Shown piece after piece: positions 8,106-20,109 of a stretch of DNA of 20,109 nucleotides. Position 1 is the first letter of the stretch, and each line of letters opens with the position of its first letter. The notes under the pieces were generated by a model. It saw only the letters and a program-made list of their open reading frames with translations. It ran no database searches and had not been told where the DNA came from. The position numbers were made by a program, and so were the translations under genes. Source of the stretch: a virus; IMG/VR virus record IMGVR_UViG_3300042555_002565, positions 1 through 20,109 of that record; one strand, written 5' to 3'.

Positions 8106-10023
8106 GATTATGTAAGTAAAATCCTTTAGTATCTATTGCTTTAGAAGCTGCAAACATTTTACAAGTAAATGTAACGGCATTGATTTTTGGATCATCTATT
8201 CTTGTTATTTTTGGCTCTTCATAACCTTTTAAATAAGATAAAATTAAACCGTCAATATCTTCCGGACTTGAAATAAAAATAGCCGCATTTTTCCCTAATT
8301 CCTCAAGTCTATTTTCAACTATTACTTCAAATCTTCCAGCATAAATATTTAAATCTTGTGATTTTACTGCTGGAATAGAAGCTAAAACTCTTCTTACTAT
8401 TGGTTCATTTGTTTTAGTTGTATAAACATATTTATACTCTGGAATTTCAATCAAATTATTATCAGCATCTTTTAATCTTGTTAATGCAACTAGAGCTTCT
8501 GTAATAACATCATCACTAAATATTTTATCTTTTGTTTCAACCGCAATATTTCCTCTTTTTTCATGAAATATAGGAAGACCATCTGATAAATTAGTATTAT
8601 TTTTGGTTAAGTTATTATATACGAGTGTTGAAATCTTTTTAGCTGTTGAGTCCGCAAACATTTGAAAGGCTCTTGGTAAAACATTTAAACGGTCGTTTAA
8701 AAACATTTCTTCAGAAAATGAAAAACTATTTCCGTGTTTAGATGTCTTATAAGTTTCTGCACTTTCACCAAAAGTAACTTCGTTATATGCTTCTAGTTCT
8801 CCAAGATCCGCTAATTCACCAAATGATCCCGTTTGTAATTCAGTTTTGATATTTAGGTCACTTACTTCTACTTTTCTTACAATTTTTTCATAAGTCTTAC
8901 TAACTATTTTATATCTATCTCTTAAAGTTTTATCTGCAATATTAGATAGAATTAAAGGTAAATCTGTTGATGTAATTGCACGCTGGAATAGGTCAACTGG
9001 ATTATATAAATCCCCATTTCTAACTAAACGCCTAGCTATTTCTACCATTGATAAATTCAAGAATCGTTTACTATTATCATCAATTTTATCTTTATCGCCT
9101 AGCATTCTATATGTAAGTGCGCTTTCAATTCCTGATCTTGTAAACTGGCTTTCATCATGACCTGTTGAAGTAACAGGAGCATGTCGCATTTGTGTATTCT
9201 TTTCTTTAAAATCTTTTAAAACAATTTCAGATATTCTAACTTTTGCTTCATCCAAACTTGTAACTGATTTAATTATCTCATTAGCTCTTGTAAAATCTAA
9301 AAAAGACTCTGAACAAATACGGTTTATTTCAGAACAATCATTTGCTGATAATTCTTTTTTTATTGCACTTACAGGCTCAGAATTTGCATTTGCACGAACT
9401 TGATTTACAGGTTCAGGACTTGCAATTGTCTGTGTAGTTGTTGCTGTTTGGTTATCTGTTAACATTAATAATCTCCTATTTTCAATAATTATTTGAGGGA
9501 TATAATCATCATCTAAAGCACGCACGCCAGCGTCTGGATCTGCTGGTACAGTTACAAAGGAAAGTTCAAGTGGTAAAATCTTAGTGGCTCTTACGGTTTC
9601 GTATTTTTCACCTTCATTTTTATATTTTTTGTAATCTAAAACACGATATCCTATTGACACATTTCGCAAAATGCCATCTAAAATATCTTGATAAATTGGT
9701 TCAACATCATCTCTTTTAGAGAATCTTATTTTTGCTTTAAGCTTTCCCTCCTCAACCCATGAATTTTCAATAACTCCAATTTGACTATTTAATTCGTAGT
9801 AATGGTCTTTTAGTAATGGTGCACAACCAGATCCAAATCTTGAAAAATCAATTGAATCTTTTGTGATTTCAATTTCCTCATAAACTGGGTCTTCGAACCA
9901 TCTATAACGCAAAACTTTTGCTCCAGTGGAGGCGATAACTTCAATAGTTCTATTTTCTGCATCTTTATTATGTACTTCAAATGAAATAGATCTTATTGCG
10001 CTATTTCTTTTTATTATTGTCAC
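8086..10023 (-). CDS. Prohead protease-major capsid fusion protein
   Basis: This 645-residue fusion joins three parts. Residues 1-175 are an HK97/U35-type prohead protease: probable His74 lies in LLKDHYY and Ser123 in ILRNVSIGYRV, and ELSFVTVPADPDAGVRAL is the usual end motif. Residues about 176-290 are a polar, Gln/Thr-rich linker that may act as scaffold. Residues about 290-645 are a Mu gpT-like major head protein (DLPLILSNIADKTLRDRY, SFSEEMFLNDRLNVLPRAF, SKAIDTKGFYLHNP). Similar protease/capsid fusions are known from other prophages; self-cleavage should release the coat domain. The start is GTG at 10023, 23 nt inside the portal gene, backed by an AGGAG Shine-Dalgarno eight bases upstream. 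A second start inside is described separately. Confidence 0.87.
   Translation of the reverse strand: MTIIKRNSAIRSISFEVHNKDAENRTIEVIASTGAKVLRYRWFEDPVYEEIEITKDSIDFSRFGSGCAPLLKDHYYELNSQIGVIENSWVEEGKLKAKIRFSKRDDVEPIYQDILDGILRNVSIGYRVLDYKKYKNEGEKYETVRATKILPLELSFVTVPADPDAGVRALDDDYIPQIIIENRRLLMLTDNQTATTTQTIASPEPVNQVRANANSEPVSAIKKELSANDCSEINRICSESFLDFTRANEIIKSVTSLDEAKVRISEIVLKDFKEKNTQMRHAPVTSTGHDESQFTRSGIESALTYRMLGDKDKIDDNSKRFLNLSMVEIARRLVRNGDLYNPVDLFQRAITSTDLPLILSNIADKTLRDRYKIVSKTYEKIVRKVEVSDLNIKTELQTGSFGELADLGELEAYNEVTFGESAETYKTSKHGNSFSFSEEMFLNDRLNVLPRAFQMFADSTAKKISTLVYNNLTKNNTNLSDGLPIFHEKRGNIAVETKDKIFSDDVITEALVALTRLKDADNNLIEIPEYKYVYTTKTNEPIVRRVLASIPAVKSQDLNIYAGRFEVIVENRLEELGKNAAIFISSPEDIDGLILSYLKGYEEPKITRIDDPKINAVTFTCKMFAASKAIDTKGFYLHNPKLAKT
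9463..9477 (-). promoter_or_regulatory. Probable internal ribosome binding site and start within the capsid fusion gene
   Basis: Codons for Arg-Arg just before Met187 read AGG AGA, followed by TTA TTA ATG. This gives an AGGAGA Shine-Dalgarno seven bases from an in-frame ATG at 9465. Initiation here would make a 459-residue scaffold-plus-capsid protein without the protease domain. Lambda Nu3 and Mu Z are established examples of nested in-frame starts after a protease. Use of this site is inferred. Confidence 0.55.
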
Positions 10024-11488
10024 TTTTCTTACTCCTACTAGAATTTAATGAGCCATTTTGTGTTGTATCCTTAGGGTTGCAATCCAGCTTTATTCCCATC
10101 CTATCTAGCTCATCAAATATGTGCTTAATTTTTTGCAAAACGGTTGCACTATTTTGTCCATATTCTCGGTGAATTTCATCAAGGGAACAAAATCCATTTC
10201 TAATTTTCATAATATCTGCTTGAACTTCTTTAAGTGGATCAATCATTTCTCTTCTTGGAGGTGTCCAATTTACTTTAATTTTTGTTGTGTCAATTCCGTA
10301 ATATAAGTTAACAGATTGTAAAAACCATTTAAAAACAGGTTCACAAAACATTGGAATCAAAATATTCCACCGCCACATCTCAATATTGCGATAAAATTCT
10401 AACCAACCCATACGACCGCTTGAAAAATTTACTTGCGATAAATCACCGCTTAATACCTCATAAGTAACACCTAAACCGCATGCTATTTTCTTTAAATAAG
10501 AAGCACAAAAAGCCTCGTGTCCTGTAACTGTTGGAGGTTTTGATAAGGTAACAGTGCGGCCGGCTGGTAAAGTTACGGTAAGACCTGGCATCATTTCTAT
10601 ATTTTTATTTTCTTCATCATCTTCATTTGATTCTGTTGGACAATTCCCATCAATATCATGAACAAATGCGGTATATAAGGATGCTATTTTTCTTCTTATA
10701 AGTTCTGCATGTTGGTAATCAGACAAATCTTTCACATCTAATAAAATAGGAGCTAACCAAGGAATACCACGAACTTGAGAAGTATTTTCCATTCTTAACA
10801 TTTGCAACATTTCATTAGATGATATTAATGTACTTTGTGAATAATAAGAATTAATATTATTTTTAACAAAATAGCCAAGTCGCCTACCTCTCTCATTAAA
10901 TTTAATTCCTTGGCTAATGATATCAGGATCGCTAGGGTCTTTTATTCCTGTATTATCTTTATTTATATCAATTAACTCTGATCTTATTAATTTTAATTCA
11001 AAAGGAATTTTTCCATTTTCAAATTTATTAGGAAATTTTCTAGCAAAACAATCTCCTGATTCAGCTACTTCTTTCATAATTAATGCTTGCATGCCTGAAA
11101 ATGTAAGCATTTTTTCAGCATCAAAATCTGTCGATTCTGTAAAATTATTCCAAAGCTCTTGAACTTGTTCATGCGGCTTTCCGTCTTTAACAATTTCAGC
11201 GGTGATTCCAGTTCCTACCGTGTTGCTTTCAATAGCTGTAATTCCACGGCGTGAATAGCCATCATTCTTTACTAAATCACGGGATCTTGCTCTTAAAATA
11301 TCAAGTCCTAAACGTGAATCTGAATTTATTGAGCTATTATTTAACTCCCAATATTTATATCGATCCGATTTTGTAGCACCTTGGAAATTTCTTATTTCAT
11401 TTAAAAACTCTTTTTTATGCCTTATTAGTTGCCTTTTTTTACTTTCATTAGAAGAAAATAAGTCTTTAAATTTATCAATGAAGTCCAT
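10001..11488 (-). CDS. Portal protein (lambda gpB family)
   Basis: This 495-residue protein would form the dodecameric portal at the packaging vertex. It has the features of the lambda-type portal family: RARSRDLVKNDGYSRRGITAIESNTVG near residues 65-90, an ESGDCFARKF stretch, GIPWLAPILLDVKDLSDYQHAELIRRKIAS in the middle, and the SGDLSQVNFSSGRMGWLEFYRNIEMWRW region followed by FCEPVFKWFL. The last motif, VNWTPPRREMIDPLKEVQA, is diagnostic. The length is close to lambda gpB (533). The C-terminus is basic and polar. The gene follows the gpW-like connector by five bases and overlaps the capsid fusion gene, all consistent with a head operon. Confidence 0.95.
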   Translation of the reverse strand: MDFIDKFKDLFSSNESKKRQLIRHKKEFLNEIRNFQGATKSDRYKYWELNNSSINSDSRLGLDILRARSRDLVKNDGYSRRGITAIESNTVGTGITAEIVKDGKPHEQVQELWNNFTESTDFDAEKMLTFSGMQALIMKEVAESGDCFARKFPNKFENGKIPFELKLIRSELIDINKDNTGIKDPSDPDIISQGIKFNERGRRLGYFVKNNINSYYSQSTLISSNEMLQMLRMENTSQVRGIPWLAPILLDVKDLSDYQHAELIRRKIASLYTAFVHDIDGNCPTESNEDDEENKNIEMMPGLTVTLPAGRTVTLSKPPTVTGHEAFCASYLKKIACGLGVTYEVLSGDLSQVNFSSGRMGWLEFYRNIEMWRWNILIPMFCEPVFKWFLQSVNLYYGIDTTKIKVNWTPPRREMIDPLKEVQADIMKIRNGFCSLDEIHREYGQNSATVLQKIKHIFDELDRMGIKLDCNPKDTTQNGSLNSSRSKKSDNNKKK

Positions 11489-11493
11489 TTTTT

Positions 11494-11709
11494 TTAGACT
11501 CCCTTGTTAAATATAGAGTAACTTAACATAGTTCTTTGTTTTTTTGTTACTTTAGATAATTCATTAAGAAGTATTTGTCTTGCCTTAAGCATTTCATCTA
11601 TAGATCTGTAAACAACTTCTTTCCCATCATCAAATTTCACAGAATGAATAGATTTTGATATGGAAATATTTAAAGCTTCTAATCTGTTTTCAATTTCTTC
11701 TTTTTTCAT
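11494..11709 (-). CDS. gpW-like head-tail connector
   Basis: This 71-residue protein resembles the lambda gpW family of small connectors that bind below the portal. A first helix (EIENRLEALNISISKSIHSV) is followed by a short hairpin FDDGKEVVYRSI and a second helix DEMLKARQILLNEL, the helix-hairpin-helix layout of gpW. It lies directly before the portal gene, where gpW genes usually sit. There is no normal Shine-Dalgarno. The only purine-rich element is a run of five G about ten bases upstream, inside the terminator-like hairpin described at 11711-11744. Confidence 0.7.
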   Translation of the reverse strand: MKKEEIENRLEALNISISKSIHSVKFDDGKEVVYRSIDEMLKARQILLNELSKVTKKQRTMLSYSIFNKGV

Positions 11710-11833: not shown

Positions 11834-12070
11834 ATGATATTAAAAGGTAACTTTGAATTGACTATTGATGAAATGATAAAATTGCAAGAGAAAAATAAAA
11901 ATAAAGTTTTTTATATAAAAGATTTATCTGGTCATTTGTATAAAGCAAAAGAGATTCAAAAGAATAATGATATTATAATTTTCAAATATTCTAAAGGCAT
12001 ATTTTGCGATCTTATAGCATATATTCCTATAAATAAAATTGTAGCAATATCAGAAAATGAAAAACAATAA
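11834..12070 (+). CDS. Uncharacterised 78-residue protein on the opposite strand
   Basis: This is the only supported plus-strand gene. Its strong AAAGGAGAG Shine-Dalgarno sits five bases before ATG. The 78-residue product is Lys/Ile-rich. It has an N-terminal LTIDEMIKLQEKNKNKVFY stretch followed by beta-like segments (LSGHLYKAKEI, DIIIFKYSKGIF, AYIPINKIVAI), suggesting a small compact fold. No signal peptide or membrane segment is evident. It is convergent with dprA and divergent from gpW. A weak promoter is possible at TTGCAA (11766) and TTTATT (11790), 18 bases apart. The isolated, independently oriented unit inside a late operon looks like a phage moron, expressed apart from the head genes. 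The family is not recognised. Confidence 0.6.
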   Translation: MILKGNFELTIDEMIKLQEKNKNKVFYIKDLSGHLYKAKEIQKNNDIIIFKYSKGIFCDLIAYIPINKIVAISENEKQ

Positions 12071-12161: not shown

Positions 12162-13019
12162 TTAATAAGAGAGATTAATTAAAATATCCTCAATGTTTTT
12201 CACTCGAATTGCGCCCAAAGCCTCTAATTCATGTGGCCATTGCAAATTAGAATTTTCAAAATTATTATTTAATATAAATAATGGCCTGCCCTGTTTTAAG
12301 ACAGTCCTAGCATTTGATAAAGTCCCTGATCTGTCCCTTGCTTCCACAATTATTGTCCCATTTGCTAGGGCTGACATAGTTTTGTTTCTTTCAATAAAAA
12401 ATCTTTTTTTAAAAGGAATTTTTAATCGCTCATATATAATAAATGGAACCTGTGAAATTAAAAGATGATTTTTAGCAATTTCATTCATTAAATCTTTATT
12501 ATTTAATGGGTAACAATGATTTAAGGATGTTCCTATTACTGCAATTGTTTGACCATTTTCTTCTAGACAAGCTTTATGTGCGGCAGTGTCTATACCTTCG
12601 GCAAGCCCCGAAATAATTACAAAACCTTTTTTTACTAACATTTTTGATATTTTTGATGCTCTTTTTAAGCCTTCATTGCTTGCGTCTCTTGACCCAATAA
12701 TTGCAATTGATGGCTTATTTATTAGTTCATATTTACCCATATAATATAATAAATATAACTTAGTATTTAAATCTAAAAGTTTTTTCGGATAATTATCTTT
12801 ACCATAAATAATAGATTCGAAAGAATTTAAATCTTTTGTCATACTTTTTATTTCTTCAAAATATTTTAAGGCAATATCTTCTTTTACTAATTCTTTAATT
12901 GAATCACTATCTATAAAGTTTTCTTCTATCATTTTAAAAGAATCTGTTAACTGATAATAGTGATTTATTTCTTGTTCAAAAAAAGCTTCGTATCTTCCTA
13001 TTTCTAATTTATTATTCAT
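12162..13019 (-). CDS. dprA: DprA/Smf family DNA processing protein, phage-borne and short
   Basis: This 285-residue protein has a complete DprA Rossmann domain: YPKKLLDL at 77-84, then LYYMGKYELINKPSIAIIGSR (GSR at 109-111), ISGLAEGIDTAAHKA at 136-150, IAVIGTSLNHCYP at 159-171, ERNKTMSALA at 210-219, and IIVEARDRSGTLSNA at 223-237. DprA binds ssDNA and, in transformation, loads RecA onto SSB-coated strands. The C-terminal winged-helix domain found in many longer DprA proteins is absent; the protein stops after GAIRVKNIEDIL. The helical N-terminus (1-70) is not a clear SAM domain. It starts in the stop of an 82-residue unknown gene (ATGA overlap). It lies inside the packaging/head operon, so a phage role is likely: replication, recombination or anti-defence. 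Confidence 0.9.
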   Translation of the reverse strand: MNNKLEIGRYEAFFEQEINHYYQLTDSFKMIEENFIDSDSIKELVKEDIALKYFEEIKSMTKDLNSFESIIYGKDNYPKKLLDLNTKLYLLYYMGKYELINKPSIAIIGSRDASNEGLKRASKISKMLVKKGFVIISGLAEGIDTAAHKACLEENGQTIAVIGTSLNHCYPLNNKDLMNEIAKNHLLISQVPFIIYERLKIPFKKRFFIERNKTMSALANGTIIVEARDRSGTLSNARTVLKQGRPLFILNNNFENSNLQWPHELEALGAIRVKNIEDILINLSY

Positions 13020-13264
13020 ACTTTCACCGATGCTATTTTAATAGTGGAATCTCTTAATTTTTTGCCATCAAAATAAATTTCCATGTATCTATTTTTTTCG
13101 TTCTCATTGTTACTAGTAAGATCTAAAAAAATAAGGCCTTTTGAAATATTTGAATTTACGAGATTTTGTTCAATTTCATCAAATTGCTCTACTAGTCGAT
13201 CACTATTAAGAGAAGTCACAACAGCTTTGTATTGCCCATTGGTTTGTTTAATTTGAAAGTTCAT
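13016..13264 (-). CDS. Uncharacterised 82-residue protein coupled to dprA
   Basis: This 82-residue protein shares an ATGA stop/start overlap with dprA and so is probably co-translated with it. Predicted elements are an N-terminal strand pair (NFQIKQTNGQYKAVVTSL), a helix (DRLVEQFDEIEQNLVNS) and then strands (GLIFLDLTS, YMEIYFDGKKLRD, IKIASVKV), an alpha/beta layout without cysteines or a membrane segment. An AAGGA element lies rather far (about 14 bases) from the ATG. No family is recognised. Its place after the terminase gene could make it a small head protein, but the coupling to dprA makes a functional partner as likely. Confidence 0.6.
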   Translation of the reverse strand: MNFQIKQTNGQYKAVVTSLNSDRLVEQFDEIEQNLVNSNISKGLIFLDLTSNNENEKNRYMEIYFDGKKLRDSTIKIASVKV

Positions 13265-13297
13265 AATTTTAATAAATCCTTATCTAATAAATAAAAG

Positions 13298-13405
13298 AAT
13301 GTATTCATTACCTTACAGGACTTTAGCGAATGCGTTCGTTTTAATTAATAATTACTTTAATGTATTCATTATTTTACGAGACTTTACCGTCCGCGTGCGG
13401 TTTAA
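13298..13405. repeat. Two diverged 47-base tandem repeats, each with a hairpin
   Basis: Copies at 13298-13344 and 13359-13405 match at 37 of 47 aligned positions without gaps. Both begin AATGTATTCATTA and contain GACTTTA. Each then has a G+C-rich hairpin: CGAA/TTCG in the first, ACCG/CGGT in the second. The stem positions vary together: a G-T pair became C-G and an A-T became T-G. They fill most of the 159-base gap between the 82-residue gene and the large terminase. Neither is followed by a good T-tract. Confidence 0.7.
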
Positions 13406-13420
13406 AAAAATGATTTATTG

Positions 13421-13438
13421 TTTTCACCAATGTGAAAA
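13421..13438. repeat. Inverted repeat across the large terminase stop codon
   Basis: TTTTCAC (13421-13427) and GTGAAAA (13432-13438) form a perfect 7-bp inverted repeat around CAAT, spanning the TGA stop of the large terminase gene. On the minus strand a run of seven T occurs about ten bases later, too far for a standard terminator. It may be a weak transcription end or processing signal. Confidence 0.4.
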
Positions 13439-15382
13439 CCTTGAACTATTATTAAGCCAGCTATGAGTTTTTCTAGTTGGTTTTTTCATAGTTTGTACAT
13501 TTTTATTAGGTTCTTTTGTTTCTTTAATTTCCCTTTTATCACCTAAAGAGGATTTAATAATCATATTTTCACTTTCGATTGCAATATTATTTGTTTTTAT
13601 TATCTCAAGTTTTCTTTCTAGTTCAAACCAATCTTTTTCTTTAAATCTTTCAATTCCAAATATTGAAGCGCAAGCCCTAGCGTAAACACGGCAGTCTAGG
13701 GCTTCGTTTCTGCTTCTTTGTTTAATCCATTTGCCTTTAAGCTCGTATTCACAAGTTAACTCTTTAAAAAAACTCTCATGATAATTTGGAAAATGGCAAT
13801 AACCCATTAATAAATCAAAATCAGATTTATTTTTGCTTAAATAATCCATCAATTCTGCTTTATATGCGTTAACATTTACCCTATAAATTTTAATACCTTT
13901 TAAAAGTTTATGGCCTGTTTTTTTAAATTCCCTTAATGGGGATATATTAAAATACTCAGTCATTTTATCTCTTCCTTGTATAGGAAAAACATGAGTAAAT
14001 TTAAAATTTTGACAGAAAGAATAAACATAAAAAGCGGTGTTGCCATCGCTTGCATCAATTCCCATTTTAGAAATTTTCATTTTTAAATCTGATCCTTCGA
14101 TATCAAATTCTTCATTTACAATTTTAGCGAGTTCTTGCCAAACTTCATTTTGATCAGTTTTTCCATATAAAATACGATAATCAACTGACCAACTTTCCTT
14201 ATTTCTTCCCCATGCGACAACTTCACAATGCAAACGATCATGTTGGACATCGACCCCACAAGTTAAAAATAAGCCGCCAATTGGTACCTTATTTAATTCG
14301 TAATTTTCCCTACGGTTATATATTTTTTCCCAATCTATTATTTCGCCTGTTTCTTCAAATGGAAGTCCTAAAACAGTATTTACAAAACTTTTATATTTAT
14401 TAATATCATTTTTAGATTCCTCAAATAATTTTACAGCTTCCCACCATTTAAACCAGCCATCCGGTGAATAAAGTCCGCTAATAAAATAGCTAGCATGTGT
14501 TGAATCTTTACTTACGGCCGTAGCTCTCCATTCACCATTATTTAACATTTTAGATTTTTGATATTCTTCAATTAAATATTTACAGCTAATACACTCATAT
14601 TTTACACTGTGATATTTACCTTCTTCCCATTTTAATTGCTCAAATTCCAATGTTTGATAAAAATTACATTCGGGACATGGGACAAAATACTTTCTTTGAT
14701 CACCTTCTAAATATGATTTATTAATTTTAGATCTTGAAGCACCTAGAGATGGTGTTGATATTAAAATAATTTTTTTATTAGGAAATGTATTTGTTCTTTG
14801 CATTGATAATTCAATTGGGCAGCCTTCACCTTCGACATCGTCGGGCATGCGGTCAATTTCGTCTAATACTAATTTACCAATGGGTAAAGAACATAGGCTT
14901 GAAGCACTATTTGCCCCTGATATCGCTAAATAGCCTCCTTCAAATTCTTTCATTAGAATAGTATTTCCAGAATCTCTTTCTCTTGCATCTTTTATTTTAT
15001 TTTTAAGAGATTTAGAATTTTCAAACATAGGTTTTAATCTAGTTTTAGAAAACTTTTCTGCAAGTTGAACAGAAGGTAACACATACATAATAGGAGATGG
15101 CGATATATCAACGTAATAACCTATAAAATTACATGCTGCATTAGTAAACCCTAATTGTGCACCTTTCATTATCGTAATTTTTAAAAATTTAGAACTGCAT
15201 GATAAATTTTTTAATATTTCCCTCAAGTATGGCGTTATGCTTAAACGATATAGACCCGGACTTGAAGAAGAAACAGAAGATAAAATGATATTTTGCTCTG
15301 ACCATTCATCTATATCTATTCGTTTTGTTGGCTTTAAACCACGCTTAAATGCTTCAATATAAAAAGAATTATTTATATTCAT
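13424..15382 (-). CDS. terL: Terminase large subunit (lambda GpA family)
   Basis: This 652-residue protein is the packaging motor ATPase and nuclease that cuts concatemers and drives DNA into proheads. The ATPase half has a GpA-style Walker A (MKGAQLGFTNAA, Lys73), Walker B (KLVLDEIDRM, 170-179) and a coupling motif ILISTPS (206-212). A zinc-ribbon follows with CPEC (236-239) and CISC (264-267). The nuclease half shows CGVDVQHDRLH (375-385), GIDASDGNTA and SRNEALDCRVYARA with conserved acidic residues. The length matches lambda gpA (641). It overlaps the small subunit gene by 14 nt. GpA-type enzymes usually cut at cos, which fits the candidate site upstream. Confidence 0.96.
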   Translation of the reverse strand: MNINNSFYIEAFKRGLKPTKRIDIDEWSEQNIILSSVSSSSPGLYRLSITPYLREILKNLSCSSKFLKITIMKGAQLGFTNAACNFIGYYVDISPSPIMYVLPSVQLAEKFSKTRLKPMFENSKSLKNKIKDARERDSGNTILMKEFEGGYLAISGANSASSLCSLPIGKLVLDEIDRMPDDVEGEGCPIELSMQRTNTFPNKKIILISTPSLGASRSKINKSYLEGDQRKYFVPCPECNFYQTLEFEQLKWEEGKYHSVKYECISCKYLIEEYQKSKMLNNGEWRATAVSKDSTHASYFISGLYSPDGWFKWWEAVKLFEESKNDINKYKSFVNTVLGLPFEETGEIIDWEKIYNRRENYELNKVPIGGLFLTCGVDVQHDRLHCEVVAWGRNKESWSVDYRILYGKTDQNEVWQELAKIVNEEFDIEGSDLKMKISKMGIDASDGNTAFYVYSFCQNFKFTHVFPIQGRDKMTEYFNISPLREFKKTGHKLLKGIKIYRVNVNAYKAELMDYLSKNKSDFDLLMGYCHFPNYHESFFKELTCEYELKGKWIKQRSRNEALDCRVYARACASIFGIERFKEKDWFELERKLEIIKTNNIAIESENMIIKSSLGDKREIKETKEPNKNVQTMKKPTRKTHSWLNNSSRFSHW

Positions 15383-18073: not shown

Positions 18074-18625
18074 TTATTTAAAAAACAATTCGTCGTCATC
18101 ATCATCTTTTTTAATATTTGTCTTTTTTGAAATAGGACTAGGCGTATTTTTATCAACTAAAATCGGTTCTGCTAGTGCTTTTCTTTGTATTCCATTCTTT
18201 TTATCTTCACCAATAGCAGGTCGTACATAATCTTTAATCTCAAATAATCTTACTTGTGGTTCATTTCTTCCATTATAATCATTAAATTTATGAAAAACAT
18301 CAGCACTAAATTCTCTACCAATTAAATTTTCTAATTCATTTAATTTAAGGTTTTTAAATTGACACGCTTTAATTATTAATGCTACTTTCTTTAAATTGTA
18401 TTCTGATTGTTCTTTTGTAGCAAATACTAAACCATAAAATACACAGTAATTTTTAAATTTTTGGCTTGTAACTTTAAATTTAAATTTAATCTGTGTATTA
18501 CCGTTTTTTGTAACTGAATTATCAACATTTTCAACTACAAAATTATATCTACCCTTTTCAATAATATCATTCTCATTGTCATATTCATCTGTATTAATTT
18601 CCATATTAAAATCAAAATCAATCAT
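18074..18625 (-). CDS. DUF669 single-strand DNA-binding-like protein
   Basis: This 183-residue protein matches DUF669 phage proteins. An early strand pair is EKGRYNFVVENVDNSVTKNGNTQIKFKFKVTS, followed by NYCVFYGLVFATKEQSEYNLKKVALIIKACQ ('...a.......l..l..a'), LNELENLIGREFSADVF, and a charged end. The C-terminal tail is DDDDDELFF plus Lys, much like the acidic, phenylalanine-ended tail of SSB that recruits partner proteins. DUF669 genes often stand next to Sak4/AAA_24 genes, as here, and may serve as the phage SSB. The gene has a GAAAGGG Shine-Dalgarno and lies 25 bases after the ATPase gene. Confidence 0.75.
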   Translation of the reverse strand: MIDFDFNMEINTDEYDNENDIIEKGRYNFVVENVDNSVTKNGNTQIKFKFKVTSQKFKNYCVFYGLVFATKEQSEYNLKKVALIIKACQFKNLKLNELENLIGREFSADVFHKFNDYNGRNEPQVRLFEIKDYVRPAIGEDKKNGIQRKALAEPILVDKNTPSPISKKTNIKKDDDDDELFFK

Positions 18626-19384: not shown

Positions 19385-19987
19385 TTAAACATGAAATGAA
19401 AGCTTAGAGCCTCTAAAAAAAGGCACAAATCTTTCATTATTTGAAATTTCATTATTATTTTTATTATTTCTACGCTCTAAATATCTTCTAATTTCAAACA
19501 CGCCAAAATGCCTTAATTCAATTCTATTTAAATCAATTAAAATGTTAGATATTGTTTTAAAAAATTCATTTACCACCAAATAACAATCATCTTTATGGAT
19601 TAGAAGACCTGAATTTTTTAAAGACTCGTGTAATTTTTCGGATAGTAAAATACTATAATTTGAATCACTGAACTGATCTGATTTGTTCTTTAAAGAGTAT
19701 TTAAAATTCTTAGAAAACTTACAACGTACTACTGGCTTAATATTAATATTGTTAATTTTTTCTTTTGTTTTAAAATTCATTCCTGATTTAATATTGTAAG
19801 TTTTTTTGTAGAAAACTCCCAAGTTCGTTATTTTTAAAACATTATTTGAATTAATTTCTTGAATACACAAATGAATTATTCTGTTTACAATAAGTTCTAA
19901 TTTGCAAGTATCCACTGTGTAATCTTCTAGCATTGTGTTAATTAAATCTTTTTTTGTATATGTTTTATTACTAACAGTTTTTTTCAT
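19385..19987 (-). CDS. Tandem HU/IHF-like DNA-binding protein
   Basis: This 200-residue protein contains two HU/IHF folds in one chain. Domain 1 (about 10-100) has TKKDLINTMLEDY, ITNLGVF in place of 'GFGtF', and GMNFKTKEKINNINIKPV. Domain 2 (about 113-200) has ELRHFGVFEIRRYLERRNNK and ends VPFFRGSKL. HU-family dimers bend DNA, and a fused pair could act as a single-chain dimer. The arm-tip proline that normally intercalates in DNA is replaced by Phe72 in domain 1 and by Lys176 or a neighbour in domain 2. I chose the ATG at 19987 (GAGG six bases upstream) over a TTG four codons earlier. Confidence 0.82.
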   Translation of the reverse strand: MKKTVSNKTYTKKDLINTMLEDYTVDTCKLELIVNRIIHLCIQEINSNNVLKITNLGVFYKKTYNIKSGMNFKTKEKINNINIKPVVRCKFSKNFKYSLKNKSDQFSDSNYSILLSEKLHESLKNSGLLIHKDDCYLVVNEFFKTISNILIDLNRIELRHFGVFEIRRYLERRNNKNNNEISNNERFVPFFRGSKLSFHV

Positions 19988-19995
19988 TTCTAACC

Positions 19996-20109
19996 TCAAT
20001 TTATTACAAAAACATCTTCAATTGCTTTGTTTATTTCTTGATCGTTAAGATATTTTTTTAGTAATAAGACACATGACAAACTTTCATTAGTCATATTTCC
20101 TCTGTCTCT
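19996..20109 (-). CDS. Small ORF or end of a longer gene, cut by the window edge
   Basis: This open frame ends in TGA at 19998-19996, just before the HU-like gene, whose GAGG Shine-Dalgarno overlaps the stop. An ATG at 20094 preceded by AGAGGA would give a 32-residue, helical peptide starting MTNESLSCVLLLKKYLNDQE. The frame stays open to the edge, so this may be the C-terminus of a longer protein. No family is recognised. Confidence 0.4.
   Translation of the reverse strand, partial: RDRGNMTNESLSCVLLLKKYLNDQEINKAIEDVFVIN

What the first reader, a model, noticed from the sequence alone, without database searches (positions are those of the whole stretch)
12162..13264. A DprA protein coupled to an unknown 82-residue protein inside a phage head operon
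A DprA with all core motifs sits between terminase and portal, outside any competence context. It lacks a winged-helix C-terminal domain and shares an ATGA overlap with an unknown gene. Phages rarely need transformation proteins. Inferred roles include loading host RecA or the phage Sak4-like protein on ssDNA, protection of incoming ssDNA, or anti-defence sensing through the nucleotide-binding-like fold.
Basis: partly seen in the sequence, partly recalled or inferred. Interest (0 to 1): 0.72.

Follow-up and report, generated by a model that had tools for sequence, protein, structure and literature searches.

The report
Phage carrying two orphan antitoxin genes
A bacterial virus carries two overlapping genes that resemble antidotes of bacterial anti-virus toxin systems (ShosA and RnlB) but neither toxin, so it probably disarms its host's self-destruct defences rather than using a DNA-uptake protein.

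Summary
In detail: a 285-aa DprA-fold gene and an 82-aa gene share an ATGA overlap between the large terminase and the head-tail joining/portal genes. The interpretation changes. The DprA-fold protein is not a transformation-type DprA. It groups with ShosA, the DprA-like antitoxin of ShosTA defence systems, in a tree, has the ShosA signature residues, and has lost the acidic RecA-contact triad of pneumococcal DprA. The 82-aa gene is not unknown: it matches RnlB, the antitoxin of the RNase RnlA (Pfam 45.6 bits, cut-off 27). Among 75 related viral ShosA loci with sequence downstream, 72 have the phosphoribosyltransferase toxin nearby; this phage has none in 25.6 kb. RnlA is also absent. A collinear Silvanigrella phage lacks the ShosA gene and carries its RnlB-like gene at another site, also without a toxin. 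Best reading: a moron-like cassette of two orphan antitoxins that protects the phage against toxin-antitoxin (abortive infection) defence. That function is inferred, not shown. Phage antitoxins are a known kind (T4 Dmd, ICP1 AdfB); an adjacent ShosA-type plus true RnlB-type pair is a variant I did not find described in the open-access papers searched.

The parts
12162..13019 (-). ShosA-type DprA-like protein (orphan antitoxin candidate), 285 aa
   Evidence: PF02481 198.5 bits; PADLOC ShosA PDLC03961 273 bits (canonical DprA score 222-229, known ShosA-type 310-343); tree; residue test; model pLDDT 90.3
13016..13264 (-). RnlB-type antitoxin homologue, 82 aa, shortened at the C-terminus
   Evidence: PF15933 RnlB_antitoxin 45.6 bits, cut-off 27; 29% identity over 79 aa to E. 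coli K-12 RnlB; 51% to an orphan copy in a Silvanigrella phage
13016..13019 (-). ATGA stop/start overlap coupling the two genes
   Evidence: read directly from the sequence
11834..12070 (+). 78-aa ORF on the opposite strand with a good ribosome-binding site; unknown, inside the same insert
   Evidence: no family at cut-off, no homologue in phage records
11718..11745 (-). intrinsic terminator between the cassette and the head-tail joining gene
   Evidence: 11-bp stem plus T run; region folds at -14.5 kcal/mol, z -3.0
13280..13401 (.). tandem 61-bp direct repeat (72% identical) between TerL and the RnlB-like gene; possible control region
13424..15382 (-). terminase large subunit (left flank of the insert)
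11494..11709 (-). head-tail joining protein (right flank of the insert)
   Evidence: NCBIfam NF047331, phrog_2545
10001..11488 (-). portal protein, lambda family
18074..18625 (-). phage SSB; SSB-DNA complexes are a reported or proposed trigger of ShosTA
   Evidence: phrog_378; literature PMC10732053
18651..19370 (-). Sak4-like recombinase
   Evidence: phrog_124, PF13479

Best explanation
The insert is a moron-like counter-defence cassette: two orphan antitoxins translated from one coupled unit. The ShosA-type protein would cancel a host or prophage ShosT phosphoribosyltransferase toxin, by binding the toxin or, as described for ShosA, by binding DNA and favouring repair. The RnlB-like protein would bind and inhibit a host RnlA RNase. 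Without a toxin of its own, the phage gains immunity to abortive infection set off by its own SSB/recombination intermediates or by loss of the host antitoxin. Shown here: family assignments, gene coupling, absence of the toxins from 25.6 kb of the phage, and insertion relative to a collinear phage. Inferred: neutralisation of host toxins, the toxins' presence in the host, and the host itself (probably a Silvanigrella relative).
For: ShosA identity: canonical DprAs form one clade (support 100), and the window lies with the ShosA group (98). At pneumococcal position 258 canonical DprA has G (13/13), the ShosA set W (86/86) and the window W; position 243 is acidic in 13/13 canonical, 1/86 ShosA, and P in the window. 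Toxin missing: 71 of 77 viral ShosA loci have ShosT nearby by profile, one more (L151) has an adjacent Pfam PRTase, and two end at the contig edge, so 72 of 75 testable. The window and its extension have no ShosT, no PRTase match and no remnant, and no RnlA match (phmmer with E. coli RnlA). RnlB: Pfam 45.6 bits; the one cellular copy found in the survey sits directly after an RnlA toxin, whereas both phage copies have no RnlA match in their records. Insertion: about 28 genes collinear with the Silvanigrella phage, in which TerL is followed at once by the joining protein. RnlB is under purifying selection like TerL (pN/pS 0.46 vs 0.44). Precedents: phage antitoxin mimics and clustered anti-defence genes (PMC11481870, PMC10286901); ShosA is an antitoxin acting through DNA (PMC12593503); phage SSB activates ShosTA (PMC10732053).
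Against: No neutralisation was tested, and no host genome was available to show that the toxins exist there. The RnlB-like protein lacks about 30-40 C-terminal residues of RnlB. The phage records are fragments (largest 25.6 kb), so a distant toxin is not excluded. A site in the head operon followed by a terminator is not an obvious place for an early-acting counter-defence gene, and no convincing own promoter was found. The solved ShosA (8zva/9vzo) is of a different ShosA subtype, more distant from the window than pneumococcal DprA by sequence.
Confidence: 0.55

Rival explanations
1. The DprA-fold protein is a phage recombination or DNA-protection factor: it binds ssDNA and works with the phage SSB and Sak4 (or host repair) to support phage replication; the RnlB-like gene is a passenger.
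For: The phage encodes SSB and Sak4. The ssDNA-contact arginine (Spn R115) is kept. ShosA is reported to bind DNA and promote recombination (PMC12593503).
Against: The acidic RecA-contact triad and two dimer-interface residues are lost. The gene is absent from the collinear phage, which has its own SSB and Sak4. Its coupled partner is an antitoxin-family protein.
Confidence: 0.17
2. The pair is a new two-gene or three-gene module (with the 78-aa opposite-strand ORF or an unseen effector) used for superinfection exclusion or addiction rather than counter-defence.
For: ShosTA systems are often carried by prophages as defence (71 of 77 viral ShosA loci have ShosT; PMC9122126). Another toxin-less viral ShosA (L135) follows a predicted membrane-protein gene. 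The 78-aa ORF is unexplained.
Against: Both coupled genes belong to antitoxin families. None of the 77 other viral ShosA loci has an RnlB-like neighbour. In the related phage RnlB occurs without ShosA.
Confidence: 0.13
3. The genes are remnants of two toxin-antitoxin loci whose toxins were lost; they persist by chance and do nothing now.
For: The RnlB-like protein is shorter than its relatives (82 against 107-123 aa). Broken ShosT remnants exist elsewhere (L102, L016).
Against: Both frames are intact and identical in four records; RnlB pN/pS equals that of TerL; no toxin remnant is visible in the window.
Confidence: 0.12
4. A recently captured host chromosomal (transformation-type) DprA.
For: Same fold (Z 30.5 to S. 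pneumoniae DprA).
Against: The tree and residue tests exclude the canonical clade; the score is below the curated NCBIfam dprA cut-off (183 against 191).
Confidence: 0.03

Closest known systems
ShosA of ShosTA / DprA-PRTase phage defence systems (PADLOC PDLC03961 type; E. coli P2-like hotspot, Burkholderia phage Mana, Pseudomonas phage Riah)
   Same: Same DprA-fold subfamily, 35-47% identity, same signature residues, carried by phages
   Different: The adjacent ShosT phosphoribosyltransferase toxin is missing; it is coupled to an RnlB-like gene instead and sits between terminase and head-tail joining genes
RnlB antitoxin of E. coli RnlA-RnlB
   Same: Pfam RnlB_antitoxin above the curated cut-off; 29% identity over 79 aa to K-12 RnlB
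   Different: No RnlA beside it; C-terminal part missing; phage-borne
T4 Dmd, ICP1 AdfB (Gp145), RB69 AdfA, pseudo-ToxI: phage antitoxin mimics
   Same: Phage genes that supply an antitoxin without the toxin
   Different: Dmd, AdfA and AdfB show little or no similarity to the bacterial antitoxins; here two recognisable antitoxin homologues lie in one coupled unit
Orphan antitoxins in anti-defence islands of plasmid leading regions (PMC11541004)
   Same: Antitoxin without toxin on a mobile element, proposed to counter host TA systems
   Different: Phage structural operon; families ShosA and RnlB
Silvanigrella aquatica phage MWH-Nonnen-W8red 2 (CP017837)
   Same: About 28 collinear genes; orphan RnlB-like gene (51% identity)
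   Different: No ShosA gene; its RnlB-like gene lies before the terminase small subunit

Membership tests
ShosTA (DprA-PRTase) system | ShosA-type DprA-like protein | tested here: met
   Tree support 98-100; W at Spn position 258 as in 86/86 ShosA-like and 0/13 canonical
ShosTA (DprA-PRTase) system | adjacent phosphoribosyltransferase toxin ShosT | tested here: not met
   No PRTase/ShosT match in the window or the 25.6-kb record; present in 72 of 75 testable viral loci
canonical DprA | groups with chromosomal DprA | tested here: not met
   13 canonical rows form a separate clade, support 100
canonical DprA | acidic RecA-contact triad (Spn E235/D243/E265) | tested here: not met
   R/P/L in the window; the full triad is rare even among the 13 canonical rows (1 has all three), but position 243 is acidic in all 13
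canonical DprA | dimer-interface residues (Spn I263, L269) | tested here: not met
   E and R in the window
canonical DprA | NCBIfam dprA equivalog score above cut-off | tested here: not met
   183 against 191.15 bits
canonical DprA | conserved ssDNA-contact arginine (Spn R115) | tested here: met
   R in the window
RnlB antitoxin | Pfam PF15933 above gathering cut-off | tested here: met
   45.6 against 27 bits
RnlB antitoxin | RnlA toxin next to it | tested here: not met
   E. coli RnlA (phmmer, E <= 1) finds nothing among the ORFs of the window, its left extension or the Silvanigrella phage
RnlB antitoxin | full-length fold like 6y2p chain C | tested here: inconclusive
   Single-sequence model, pLDDT 69; 6y2p_C at Z 4.1, rmsd 3.4, 74 aligned, not above unrelated rows; C-terminal part absent
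phage antitoxin mimic (Dmd/AdfB kind) | neutralises a host toxin during infection | not testable with these tools
   needs experiment
phage antitoxin mimic (Dmd/AdfB kind) | antitoxin gene without its toxin in the phage | tested here: met
   (25.6 kb of an incomplete genome)

The most novel reading that the evidence does not exclude
A dedicated phage anti-abortive-infection cassette that stacks two unrelated, genuine antitoxin homologues (ShosA type and RnlB type) in one translationally coupled unit, giving one phage simultaneous protection from a nucleotide-pool/DNA-damaging toxin and an mRNA-cleaving toxin.
Probability: 0.45. Interest if true: 0.7.

Novelty: new variant of a known kind. Interest (0 to 1): 0.52.

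Why it matters
It would show that phages acquire real antitoxins of ShosTA and RnlAB, not only unrelated mimics such as Dmd, and stack them, turning a defence gene family into a counter-defence tool. It also warns that DprA-annotated genes in phages are often antitoxins rather than transformation proteins, and gives residue tests (W against G at Spn position 258, loss of acid at 243) to tell them apart.

Tried and rejected
Rejected: unknown 82-aa protein (Pfam RnlB); transformation-type DprA; a complete ShosTA system (no ShosT). A PADLOC ShosA hit alone was rejected as proof because six canonical DprAs score 222-229 bits on the same model. Led nowhere: no Silvanigrella or other Bdellovibrionota genome could be reached, so the host's RnlA/ShosT could not be sought (one search returned none; searches failed). 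The PF15933 survey of 398 genomes of one phylum, and an A2-profile survey of 284 genomes of another, found nothing; PF15933 in 345 genomes of a third phylum found one RnlA-RnlB pair. No plasmid match for the 82-aa protein. The RnlB fold search was not significant by itself. The RnlA-RnlB structure paper was not held. A consensus promoter scan found no more sites than shuffles.

Full report
What is there. The two ORFs exist as described, overlap by ATGA and lie between TerL and the head-tail joining/portal genes. The window is a 20.1-kb virus record. Three other records hold the same DNA with 0-1 mismatches, one of them 25.6 kb long.

Who the phage is. About 28 genes are collinear with Silvanigrella aquatica phage CP017837 at roughly 28-60% protein identity, TerL at 54%. 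A Silvanigrella-like host is therefore likely (inference). In that phage TerL is followed directly by the joining protein, so the 11.7-13.4 kb stretch is an insert in the window phage. It holds the RnlB-like gene, the DprA-like gene, a 78-aa opposite-strand ORF, a tandem 61-bp repeat at the TerL side and a terminator at the joining-protein side.

The DprA-like protein. General DprA models match it, but not best: it falls below the NCBIfam dprA cut-off. The PADLOC ShosA model gives 273 bits. As a control, six canonical DprAs score 222-229 on the same model and four ShosA-type proteins 310-343, so the score alone is only suggestive. Two independent tests separate the groups. In a tree of 61 proteins the 13 chromosomal DprAs form one clade (100) and the window lies in the ShosA-like set (98), its exact place there being unresolved. 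In an alignment anchored on S. pneumoniae DprA, position 258 is G in 13/13 canonical and W in 86/86 ShosA-like proteins and the window; position 243 is acidic in 13/13 against 1/86 (window P); position 269 is mostly L against R (window R). Positions 235, 243 and 265 form the RecA-contact triad, and 263 and 269 belong to the dimer zone (PMC4066776). So RecA loading in the pneumococcal manner is unlikely, while DNA contact (R115 kept) remains possible. The model is confident and has the DprA/SLOG fold.

The 82-aa protein. It is an RnlB_antitoxin family member, 29% identical to K-12 RnlB over 79 residues and 51% to the orphan copy in the Silvanigrella phage. It is shorter at the C-terminus. pN/pS between the two phage copies is 0.46, like TerL at 0.44. 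The one cellular relative found in the genome survey sits directly behind an RnlA toxin.

Toxins missing. Of 77 other viral ShosA-like loci, 71 have ShosT nearby by profile, one more has an adjacent Pfam PRTase, and two end at the contig edge: 72 of 75 testable. These loci include near-copies, so the number is not of independent cases. The exceptions are L098, L102 (broken remnant) and L135. The window phage has no ShosT, PRTase or remnant and no RnlA match. None of the 77 loci has an RnlB-like neighbour.

Mechanism. ShosT is reported to disturb purine metabolism and damage DNA, with ShosA binding DNA and counteracting it (PMC12593503). Phage SSB activates ShosTA according to PMC10732053, and this phage encodes an SSB and Sak4. 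RnlA destroys phage mRNA once RnlB disappears, and T4 answers with Dmd (PMC5308261). Dmd has no apparent similarity to RnlB (PMC11481870). Two coupled antitoxin-family genes without toxins in a phage are most simply a counter-defence cassette. This is inference from family membership and context; no activity was measured and the host was not available.

Novelty. Phage antitoxins and clustered anti-defence genes are known. I found no report of an orphan ShosA-type or RnlB-type gene in a phage in the open-access library searched, which lacks most subscription papers. Hence 'new variant of a known kind'.

Noticed in passing
window 11834-12070 (+): 78-aa ORF with a strong ribosome-binding site on the strand opposite to all neighbours, inside the insert; no family or phage homologue found.
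   Followed up: partly
window 13280-13401: Tandem 61-bp direct repeat, 72% identical, each unit ending in a small GC-rich palindrome-like element.
   Followed up: partly
window 19385-19999: 204-aa protein with two HU/IHF-like domains fused in one chain; the Silvanigrella phage has a counterpart.
   Followed up: no
L135:3359-4849: Another viral ShosA-like gene without ShosT, directly after a 197-aa predicted membrane protein and before a DNA polymerase sliding clamp; possibly a different effector.
   Followed up: partly
L017:2950-4139: Leptolyngbya plasmid ShosA-like gene overlaps a 103-aa antibiotic-biosynthesis-monooxygenase-domain gene (ABM) instead of ShosT.
   Followed up: no
PADLOC model PDLC03961: The ShosA profile scores six canonical DprA proteins at 222-229 bits, so automatic calls of ShosA from this model alone may be wrong.
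   Followed up: yes
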